From Thermoflexus hugenholtzii JAD2 (lineage in GTDB: Bacteria > Chloroflexota > Dehalococcoidia > UBA2979), in contig CAMDNW010000004.1 in assembly GCA_945903275.1 (NCBI GenBank), positions 1 through 64,000 of the forward strand: a stretch of 64,000 bases of DNA. Reading direction: 5' to 3'. Below, in pieces: positions 123 to 62,161 of this stretch. Within the stretch, counting starts at the first letter, position 1; each line of letters begins with the position of its first letter. A model generated the notes under the pieces. It saw only the letters and a program-made list of their open reading frames with translations, made no database searches and was not told the DNA's origin. The translations under genes and the position numbers were made by a program.

Positions 123-164
123 GAACGAAGCAGCCCGGCGCATATGCGCCGGGCTGCTTCGTTC
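123..164. terminator. 42-bp perfect palindrome, likely terminator
   Basis: A 42-base perfect inverted repeat centred on CAT|ATG, with no true loop and no T-tract. It lies between the end of the OB-fold gene and the start of the DedA gene. The arms are GC-rich and 21 bp long. It resembles the other long hairpins found after genes in this window. Confidence 0.7.
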
Positions 165-20745: not shown

Positions 20746-20785
20746 ACATCGCGCCCACCCCGGACTTCCGGGGTGGGCGCGATGT
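20746..20785. terminator. 40-bp near-loopless hairpin terminator
   Basis: Two perfect 19-bp arms (20746-20764 and 20767-20785) separated by only CT. It follows the thiolase-like gene by 34 bases. It is GC-rich, with no T-tract on either side. Confidence 0.75.
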
Positions 20786-50158: not shown

Positions 50159-50196
50159 AGTCAGGAGGTCACACTCGCGAGTGTGACCTCCTGACT
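50159..50196. terminator. 38-bp perfect palindrome between convergent genes
   Basis: Perfect 19-bp arms meeting at TCG|CGA with no loop. It is placed between the ends of the exchanger (plus) and glycosyltransferase (minus), so it could stop transcription from both sides. Confidence 0.75.
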
Positions 50197-59992: not shown

Positions 59993-60259
59993 CTACTTGT
60001 TGGCGAGCGCGTAGAGCTCGACGAGTTCGTCGATGACGCGGTCGCTCTCGCCAGCCTCGATGCCCTCGACGACGCAGCCTTGGAGGTGACCGGAGAGCAG
60101 TTTCGCCTCGAGTTTCTCGATGGCGCGGCGGATGGCATAGGTCTGCTTCAGGACATCCACGCAATACTGATCCTGCTCGACCATCTTGCGAACCCCGGCG
60201 AGGTGACCCTCGATGTAGGCGAGGCGCTTGAGCGCATCGTGCTGGGTCATGTGTTCCAT
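59993..60259 (-). CDS. csoR: CsoR-family copper-sensing repressor
   Basis: 88-residue four-helix repressor. Copper ligands Cys33, His58 and Cys62 are present (DQYCVDVL, SGHLQGCVV), the order that marks CsoR as opposed to RcnR or FrmR. Binding of Cu+ would release DNA and de-repress the cop genes. Its ATG overlaps by one base the stop of the upstream HMA gene; copA follows 24 bases later. A matching operator candidate is at 60894-60914. Confidence 0.94.
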   Translation of the reverse strand: MEHMTQHDALKRLAYIEGHLAGVRKMVEQDQYCVDVLKQTYAIRRAIEKLEAKLLSGHLQGCVVEGIEAGESDRVIDELVELYALANK

Positions 60260-60864
60260 CAGTGGTGGCCTCCAGAGGGCGGCATATCGAGCGAGAGCAC
60301 GGACGGGGCGGCGGGATTGGTCATGCCATGCTCAGCGCTACGCGGGGTAGCGAGGGCGACCTCGAGGGGCTGGCCCCAGGGCATCGTCACGGTCTGCACG
60401 TCGACGGGGTGGTAGCCGGCCATGTCGCCGAGCGCAGTCTTCAGGCGGTCGGCGACATGCGCGCCGACAAGCATCTGACGGCCACAGCAGCAGGACTCAG
60501 GGGCCTGTTCAGGCTGCGAGCGGTCGAGGGCGAAACCGGCGTAGCAGGAGCACGGACAATCGTAGTTGAGATCCGCGCCAGCCTCGGTGCGGGTGACGGT
60601 ATATGCGGGATGGCTGGGGCCGTCCTCGGCGGCAGCGGGGGCGGCGTCAATGTCCGCTGCATCACCAAGCGGGTACTCCTCGGCAGCGAGGGCGGCGGTG
60701 ACGGCGTCGAGGACGGCACCAGAGGCGACCTCGATATTGAAGCGGCGGGCCTCCCATGAGCCGTCGATGAAGCGTGCGCCGGGTGTGGCGTCGACGGTCT
60801 TGCGGATCGTCTCGATGCAGTGTTCGCAGTGGATGGCGGGCGCGTAGAGCGTGAGTTGCGGCAT
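60259..60864 (-). CDS. HMA-domain protein with Cys cluster, first gene of copper operon
   Basis: 201 residues. The N-terminal HMA domain binds metal by Cys13-x-x-Cys16 (PAIHCEHCIETI). A linker rich in Ala/Asp follows. Then comes NYDCPCSCYAGFALDR and, 12 residues on, PESCCCGRQMLVG; together six cysteines in a tight group. The end is His-rich (SGGHH). Such double metal-site proteins may store or deliver copper to CopA. ATG at 60864 follows GGAGG. Its start lies 30 bases from the putative operator. Confidence 0.85.
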   Translation of the reverse strand: MPQLTLYAPAIHCEHCIETIRKTVDATPGARFIDGSWEARRFNIEVASGAVLDAVTAALAAEEYPLGDAADIDAAPAAAEDGPSHPAYTVTRTEAGADLNYDCPCSCYAGFALDRSQPEQAPESCCCGRQMLVGAHVADRLKTALGDMAGYHPVDVQTVTMPWGQPLEVALATPRSAEHGMTNPAAPSVLSLDMPPSGGHH

Positions 60865-60893
60865 TGGCGTGGTACCTCCTTCGCAAAGAGTGT

Positions 60894-60914
60894 ACCCCAC
60901 CCCCCAGGGTGGGT
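60894..60914. promoter_or_regulatory. Putative CsoR operator
   Basis: CCCACCC-CCCA-GGGTGGG is a perfect 7-bp dyad flanked by A/T (TACC and GTCT), located 30-50 bases upstream of the copper operon start. GC-rich dyads with ACCC/GGGT halves are usual for CsoR. The match is from the sequence pattern; binding is not shown. Confidence 0.55.
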
Positions 60915-60995
60915 CTGGTGCGCTGGCGAACTCCGAAAGCGGCAGGGACACAGAAGCGCCGCGGAGTGCGCGGCGTTATTTCTGCTGAGTGGGTG

Positions 60996-61041
60996 CCCGC
61001 GACCCTAGGTCGCCGAGGCCTCGGCGACCTAGGGTCGCGGG
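60996..61041. terminator. 46-bp perfect palindrome, terminator of the KAPAK peptide gene
   Basis: Perfect 23-bp arms centred on AGG|CCT without loop, starting seven bases after the stop of the AAKAPAK peptide gene (minus strand). It is the longest hairpin in the window and separates that gene from the copper operon. Confidence 0.8.
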
Positions 61042-61048
61042 GGACGCC

Positions 61049-61135
61049 CTACTTCCTCTTGGCCGGAGCCTTGGCCGGAGCCTTGGCCGGAGCCTTGGCT
61101 GCTGTCTTGGCAGCGGGCTTCTTCGCAGCGGGCAT
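61049..61135 (-). CDS. 28-residue Lys/Ala/Pro peptide (histone H1 tail-like)
   Basis: The small gene encodes MPAAKKPAAKTAAKAPAKAP then AKAPAKRK. It has 9 Lys and 1 Arg, and no acidic residue. The three APAK repeats are typical of H1/HU-type tails that neutralise DNA or RNA. An AAGGGA site lies eight bases before the ATG, and a 46-bp terminator follows seven bases after TAG. These two signals around such a short frame are good evidence that it is expressed. Function unknown. Confidence 0.7.
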   Translation of the reverse strand: MPAAKKPAAKTAAKAPAKAPAKAPAKRK

Positions 61136-61192
61136 GTGCGTGTCCCTTCAACGAGAACCTATGTGGTTTGGGCTGGCCAACCCTTGAGCAAA

Positions 61193-61221
61193 AGTATATG
61201 CAGCGATCACTGTAGGGAAAG
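61193..61221 (-). promoter_or_regulatory. Possible promoter of the KAPAK peptide gene
   Basis: On the minus strand TATACT (61193-61198) is a good -10. A weak -35 (CTTTCC) is 17 bases before. The predicted leader is about 50 nt. The surroundings are AT-rich relative to the genome. Confidence 0.35.
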
Positions 61222-61291: not shown

Positions 61292-62090
61292 TCAGCCGCC
61301 CGACCAGTGCGTGAACGCATCGAGCATGAGAACAAGGCACTTCACGCTGCCGCCCGCTTTGATGAACTCATCGGTGGGCGTCTCGACGGCGTGGAGGCCG
61401 AGGCGGACGAGTGCCTCGGCAGTCTTGGGACAGCCGGTGTTCATCACGACAGCGTCGCCGATGACGAGTGCGTTGCAGGCGAAGCGGGCGGCCTCGGCAT
61501 CCGGCACGGCGACTAGGTCGGGGAAGTACTGCTGGATGAGGCGCGAGACTCTGGCGTAAAGACGGGCGGGTAGTAGAGCGCACGCCCGCCGCCGAGCGGG
61601 CAGAAGCAGGTGTCGAGATGGTCGTAGCGTTCGTCGGCGAGTTCGAGGCGGACTGCCTCAGTGTCCAGCAGTTCGTCGAGGTGGCCGAGCACGCGGTACT
61701 CGGTGCGGAAGCGGTAGCCGGCGAAGACAGCAGCGCCGGCGGGAAGGACATCACCCTCGCCTTCCCAGTAGTGCGGTTCGTGGATCGGCGTAGTGGTGTA
61801 GCCGTGGGCCTCAAACCATTCGGTGAAGAGAGCCTCCTCGGTCTGTCGCTCGGAGAAACGAAAGTTAGCGGGGATGAAGCGGCGGCCGGCAACGCCGGTG
61901 TCGTTGCCGGTGAAGGTCATATCAGGAACATCAGGGCCCTGGGGGACGCACTCGACGTCAGACCGAGGTTGAGCAGGGCGCCTTTGAGGGCGCGCCACTG
62001 TTCGAGGATACGCGGGCCGGAGACCTGATCGGCGCGGCGCATCCACGGATTGATCTCGTAGGCGATGGTGAAATGGAGCGGCTCGCACAT
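61292..62090 (-). pseudogene. Frameshifted amidinotransferase/DDAH-type gene
   Basis: Reading through two one-base shifts gives ~265 residues: MCEPLHFTIAYEINPWMRRA, then (shift near 61965) DVECVPQGPDVPDMTFTGND, HEPHYWEGEGDVLPAG, HLDTCFCPLGGGRALYYPP, then (shift near 61560) LIQQYFPDLVAVPDAEAARF and VMNTGCPKTAEALVRLGL, ending with IKAGGSVKCLVLMLDAF. The active residues of the guanidine-group-modifying family (Asp/Glu in EGEGD, His in HLDT, Cys in GGSVKC) are all kept. The enzyme would be an N,N-dimethylarginine or ornithine-related hydrolase. The retained active site means recent inactivation or sequence errors. Confidence 0.75.
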
Positions 62091-62161
62091 CAGAACGTGA
62101 CTGGTCACCGAGCCTCCCGAGGCGGCGGGATCAGAACAGCCGCCCCCTCTATACTGCGCCC

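What the first reader, a model, noticed from the sequence alone, without database searches (positions are those of the whole stretch)
60996..61221. A complete gene for a 28-residue AAKAPAK peptide
An AT-rich promoter-like region, AAGGGA site, a 28-codon frame of Lys/Ala/Pro repeats and an adjacent 46-bp palindrome form a full unit. The product looks like a detached histone H1/HU tail. Stand-alone basic tails of this size are rarely annotated because they fall below length cut-offs. It could coat DNA, buffer nucleic acid charge or act as an antimicrobial-like peptide.
Basis: partly seen in the sequence, partly recalled or inferred. Interest (0 to 1): 0.6.

Follow-up and report, generated by a model that had tools for sequence, protein, structure and literature searches.

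The report
Conserved tail-only lysine-alanine-proline mini-protein
A tiny 28-residue protein made almost only of lysine, alanine and proline is a real gene, kept in at least 21 related uncultured Chloroflexi-type genomes as its own transcription unit, and it most likely sticks to DNA or another polyanion like a histone-H1 tail that has lost its body.

Summary
On the minus strand of 61049-61135 lies MPAAKKPAAKTAAKAPAKAPAKAPAKRK, with an AAGGGA ribosome site 7 nt upstream, a TATACT box at 61193-61198 and a perfect 46-bp palindrome (60996-61041) 7 nt after the stop. It is not chance. Similar free-standing peptides of 22-47 residues occur in 21 of 44 genomes of the same taxonomic family (8 of 17 genera). 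A strict codon pattern finds one such locus per genome and none in the 349 genomes sampled from the rest of the class. Most members keep lysines at positions 5, 6, 10, 14, 18 and 22, with Ala/Pro/Ser/Thr interchanging between them. Between genera, changes fall 515/108/1108 on codon positions 1/2/3. All have an NTG start (13 TTG, 4 GTG, 2 ATG, 2 CTG) after a ribosome site. Nearly all are followed by a strong hairpin whose sequence differs between genera. The gene sits in one of two conserved neighbourhoods. In the larger group the next gene converges on it, so it is not an attenuator leader. Pfam and NCBIfam have no accepted model for it. It works most likely like the KPAA tails of AlgP/PhaF or histone H1, as a nucleic-acid or polyphosphate-binding peptide. 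That function is inferred, not shown.

The parts
61049..61135 (-). 28-codon gene MPAAKKPAAKTAAKAPAKAPAKAPAKRK (9 K/R, no D/E), stop included
   Evidence: frame, lysine spacing and codon-position bias conserved in relatives
61143..61148 (-). AAGGGA Shine-Dalgarno-like site, 7 nt before the ATG
   Evidence: AAAGGA/AAGGGA/GAGGA-like site upstream of the start in all 21 members
61174..61198 (-). Conserved promoter/leader element TATACT...GGGTTGGCCA (TATACT at 61193-61198)
   Evidence: pattern found once each in G000, G001, G009, G010, always at this locus, none in the other 40 family genomes; alignment
60996..61041 (.). 46-bp perfect palindrome, predicted hairpin terminator 7 nt after the stop codon
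   Evidence: downstream region MFE -51.9 kcal/mol, z -3.7; hairpins of different sequence at the same position in relatives
60890..60915 (.). CsoR-operator-like palindrome in front of the CopZ-like gene; marks the start of the next transcription unit, not part of the peptide gene
   Evidence: sequence; similar CCC..GGGG element seen upstream of the CopZ-like gene in G001, G009 and G010
60259..60951 (-). Conserved downstream neighbour: HMA-like copper chaperone (CopZ-like); likely start 60864
   Evidence: (HMA E 3e-4, below the curated cut-off)
59993..60259 (-). Conserved neighbour: CsoR-type metal-sensing repressor
   Evidence: (PF02583)
61292..62108 (-). Upstream neighbour: DDAH-like gene, split by two frameshifts in this window (upper limit approximate)
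   Evidence: tblastn pieces in three frames

Best explanation
It is a real, vertically kept gene for a free-standing, presumably disordered, strongly cationic mini-protein. Its tetrapeptide repeat is KPAA/KAPA-like, with a lysine every fourth residue and a basic C-terminal cluster. It is transcribed from its own promoter and ended by its own hairpin terminator. Shown here by sequence: the gene anatomy, the coding conservation, the two conserved neighbourhoods and the independence from downstream genes. Inferred: the peptide binds DNA (or RNA/polyphosphate) electrostatically along the phosphate backbone, as the KPAA tail of AlgP/PhaF and the tail of histone H1 do, and so helps compact or neutralise the nucleoid or condense polyanions, alongside a tailless HU.
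For: 21 members in 8 genera of the family. Between-genus codon differences at positions 1/2/3 are 515/108/1108, i.e. the lysine pattern is kept while Ala/Pro/Ser/Thr interchange. NTG start and ribosome site kept in all, despite indels in the leader. Hairpin downstream in all 20 members with enough downstream sequence, with sequences differing between genera. Microsynteny: Lon-HAD-(MTase)-peptide-IMPase-GlcD in 16 genomes, and esterase-(DDAH)-peptide-CopZ-CsoR in 4. AlgP paper PMC9239181: KPAA-repeat peptides bind DNA in vitro, and the KPAA domain is needed for polyphosphate granule spacing. Own HU lacks a tail.
Against: No transcript, proteomic or binding data. Twenty-three of 44 family genomes gave no member; some are incomplete MAGs, and the patterns require AAR lysines and fixed spacing, so true absence is not shown. 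Net charge is only about +9, so binding at physiological salt could be weak. A DNA target is not distinguished from rRNA or polyphosphate.
Confidence: 0.62

Rival explanations
1. A ribosome-bound small basic peptide (works like bTHX or a ribosomal-protein extension) that neutralises rRNA.
For: Size, charge and free-standing gene resemble small basic ribosomal peptides (general knowledge).
Against: No Pfam or NCBIfam match to a ribosomal family; no ribosomal or translation genes seen next to any member examined; found in only part of the family.
Confidence: 0.15
2. A polyphosphate- or granule-binding peptide (AlgP/PhaF-like role) rather than a nucleoid peptide.
For: The KPAA repeat of several members is the AlgP repeat, and AlgP organises polyphosphate granules (PMC9239181).
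Against: No N-terminal domain to connect a granule with DNA; presence of polyphosphate kinase or PHA genes in these genomes was not tested.
Confidence: 0.15
3. A leader peptide with attenuator hairpin controlling the next gene (CopZ/CsoR in the window).
For: Short ORF followed by a hairpin and, in g1/g6, a same-strand gene.
Against: In the 16 members of the other neighbourhood the next gene, where present on the contig, is convergent. The CopZ-like gene has its own CsoR-operator-like element after the hairpin. Amino-acid pattern and C-terminal lysines are conserved throughout.
Confidence: 0.03
4. Exported antimicrobial or bacteriocin-like peptide.
For: Cationic and short.
Against: No hydrophobic face or leader sequence; no transporter or immunity gene nearby; conserved next to housekeeping genes.
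Confidence: 0.03
5. Spurious low-complexity ORF.
For: Low complexity; 12-nt tandem repeat in the DNA.
Against: Conserved frame, start, ribosome site, terminator and synteny in 21 genomes; third-position-biased changes.
Confidence: 0.02

Closest known systems
AlgP (AlgR3) and PhaF of Pseudomonas, KPAA-repeat C-terminal domain
   Same: Tetrapeptide K-P-A-A repeats, lysine every fourth residue; members such as MAATKKPAAKPAAKPAAKPAAKPKKK are made of the same repeat
   Different: AlgP is 352 aa with a 124-aa helical N-terminal domain and about 25 perfect repeats (PMC9239181); here only the repeat exists, as a 22-47-residue protein
Chlamydial Hc2 and other bacterial H1-like proteins (Pfam PF07382)
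   Same: Lys/Ala/Pro-rich; length varies by repeat number
   Different: Hc2 is 165-237 aa (PMC2848022); the 28-aa peptide has no Pfam or NCBIfam match, whereas a second, 70-aa protein of this genome passes the PF07382 cut-off
HU with a basic C-terminal tail (mycobacterial HupB type)
   Same: Tail composition (from general knowledge)
   Different: No HU domain in the peptide; the HU of this genome has no such tail
Eukaryotic histone H1 C-terminal tail
   Same: Composition, presumed disorder, basic end
   Different: No globular domain; no evidence of descent

Membership tests
AlgP/PhaF KPAA proteins | KPAA-type tetrapeptide repeat with a lysine every fourth residue | tested here: met
   K at 5,6,10,14,18,22 in most members; perfect KPAA repeats in g7/g16, KAPA/KPAA variants in the window peptide
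AlgP/PhaF KPAA proteins | N-terminal helical or phasin-like domain | tested here: not met
   whole protein is 28 aa; in-frame stop five codons upstream
Hc2 / bacterial H1-like (PF07382) | Match above the curated cut-off | tested here: not met
   none for the 28-aa peptide; 42.1 bits vs cut-off 40 for the separate 70-aa protein
HU/IHF family (PF00216) | HU domain | tested here: not met
   (no match); the only HU found in the genome is elsewhere
Ribosomal peptide bTHX or other ribosomal protein | Match to a ribosomal family model | tested here: not met
   no ribosomal model up to E = 1
Attenuator leader peptides | Followed by a same-strand regulated gene in all homologues | tested here: not met
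   convergent IMPase gene next to the members of the second neighbourhood
DNA/polyanion-binding peptides | Binding to DNA, RNA or polyphosphate | not testable with these tools
   no binding assay

The most novel reading that the evidence does not exclude
A new family of 'tail-only' architectural peptides: a bacterial family keeps a free-standing 22-47-residue H1-tail-like protein, working in trans beside a tailless HU, with selection on lysine spacing rather than on sequence.
Probability: 0.45. Interest if true: 0.7.

Novelty: new variant of a known kind. Interest (0 to 1): 0.55.

Why it matters
Basic Lys/Ala/Pro tails are known as appendages of HU, AlgP, PhaF or H1-like proteins. Here the tail alone is a conserved gene with its own promoter and terminator, short enough, and mostly TTG/GTG/CTG-started, to be missed by gene finders. 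If it binds DNA or polyphosphate in trans, it is close to a minimal natural chromatin-tail protein and a test of whether lysine spacing alone is functional.

Tried and rejected
Rfam scan of the region: only weak microRNA-model matches to the palindrome, far below the gathering scores, rejected. Sigma-70 scan: no promoter. Conserved structure of the 5' leader: MFE z-scores +0.8 to -1.7, no support. PDB sequence search: no hit. Profile-HMM search of the class at E <= 0.001 recovers only 4 genomes, probably because composition correction hides low-complexity hits; DNA codon patterns worked better. DDAH genes of genera g9, g13, g14 and g15 have no Lys/Ala/Pro-rich frame just downstream. Literature search for the repeat strings returned mostly unrelated words; the few papers holding KPAAKPAAK are on trypanosomes. 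Structure prediction was not run: a 28-residue low-complexity chain would give no usable model.

Full report
Observation. The minus strand of 61049-61135 encodes MPAAKKPAAKTAAKAPAKAPAKAPAKRK, with AAGGGA 7 nt before the ATG, an in-frame stop five codons upstream, TATACT at 61193-61198, and a perfect 46-bp palindrome at 60996-61041, 7 nt after the stop. The predicted RNA folds far better than shuffled sequence (z -5.0).

Relatives at the same locus. BLAST and profile searches of the 44 held genomes of the family found the peptide in the same-genus genome G001 and in G009 and G010 of another genus. ZH-chloro-G3 is mentioned in connection with the JG30-KF-CM66 freshwater Chloroflexi in PMC6169038; placing the window in that group is my inference. 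The leader element TATAMTT-N(2-8)-GGGYTGGCYA occurs exactly once in each of these four genomes, at this gene, and nowhere else in 44 genomes. Start codons are ATG, GTG, TTG, TTG at the same aligned site. In the five comparisons that involve the window or G001, the first 22 codons show no second-position difference. The same-genus genome G002 (76% complete) gave no match to the peptide or to the CopZ-like gene.

A wider family. A codon pattern for KK(xxxK)4 hits 12 genomes of this family and none of the 349 genomes sampled from other families of the class; the reversed control hits once in 393 genomes. A relaxed pattern and inspection give 21 free-standing members of 22-47 aa in 8 genera: g1 2/3 genomes, g5 1/2, g6 2/2, g7 6/6, g9 5/5, g13 1/2, g16 3/3, g17 1/1. 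Lysines sit at 5, 6, 10, 14, 18 and 22 in all but three (G008, G012 and G033, which are shifted or differently spaced). All end in a basic cluster. Composition is 41% Ala, 33% Lys, 16% Pro, with no acidic residue. In 18 members aligned without gaps, between-genus differences at codon positions 1/2/3 are 515/108/1108 (pairs are not independent). Starts are 13 TTG, 4 GTG, 2 ATG, 2 CTG; the two CTG starts are assigned by alignment.

Transcription unit. All 20 members with enough downstream sequence have a predicted hairpin soon after the stop (MFE -31 to -53 kcal/mol in 75 nt; z -0.6 to -3.7), with sequences that differ between genera. Four of the 7 long perfect inverted repeats in the window lie at or close to the 3' ends of crudely called genes, as terminators would. 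After the hairpin, in front of the CopZ-like gene, there is a CsoR-operator-like palindrome (60890-60915), so the copper genes look like a separate unit.

Synteny. Sixteen members lie in Lon-HAD-like-(cupredoxin-like)-(methyltransferase)-peptide-[convergent inositol monophosphatase]-GlcD; two contigs (G012, G019) end before the downstream genes. Four lie in esterase-(DDAH)-peptide-CopZ-CsoR; G008 has the esterase 3.6 kb away and a LOG-type gene (PF03641) downstream. The cupredoxin-like and HAD-like names are from inspection; Pfam gave no match for either. The convergent neighbour in the larger group excludes an attenuator leader as a general explanation.

Mechanism. The repeat is that of the AlgP/PhaF KPAA domain, whose peptides are reported to bind DNA and which positions polyphosphate granules (PMC9239181). 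I therefore infer an electrostatic DNA/polyanion-binding mini-protein. This genome's HU is 92 aa without a basic tail, so the peptide could act as a tail in trans; this last step is speculation. It is not a member of AlgP, Hc2 or HU families by their defining features, although it may work like their tails.

Limits. No expression or binding evidence. Non-detection in 23 family genomes is not proof of absence, because MAGs are incomplete and the patterns demand fixed spacing.

Noticed in passing
window 61292-62108 (-): The DDAH-like gene upstream is split over three frames by two frameshifts (near 61540-61570 and near 61957); pseudogene or assembly error not resolved. Intact relatives exist in G009 and G010.
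   Followed up: partly
L030 1221-1430 (-) (G000:C3:32221-32430): Second free-standing Lys/Ala/Pro protein of the same genome, 70 aa, MATTRSTAAKKPATRKPAAKK..., passes Pfam HC2 (PF07382) and is followed by a long hairpin; similar free-standing 106-112-aa proteins occur in genus g9.
   Followed up: partly
leaders of g7, g9 and g16 members (e.g. L115, L117, L121): The sequence CCCATGGG recurs about 50 nt upstream of the start codon in most members of these three genera; role unknown.
   Followed up: no
window 123-164, 20746-20785, 50159-50196: Other long perfect palindromes without a U-run; the latter two follow the 3' ends of called genes, which suggests U-less hairpin terminators in this lineage.
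   Followed up: partly
L016, L021: Dephospho-CoA kinase-like ORFs carry long Lys/Ala/Pro tails in other genera of the family.
   Followed up: no
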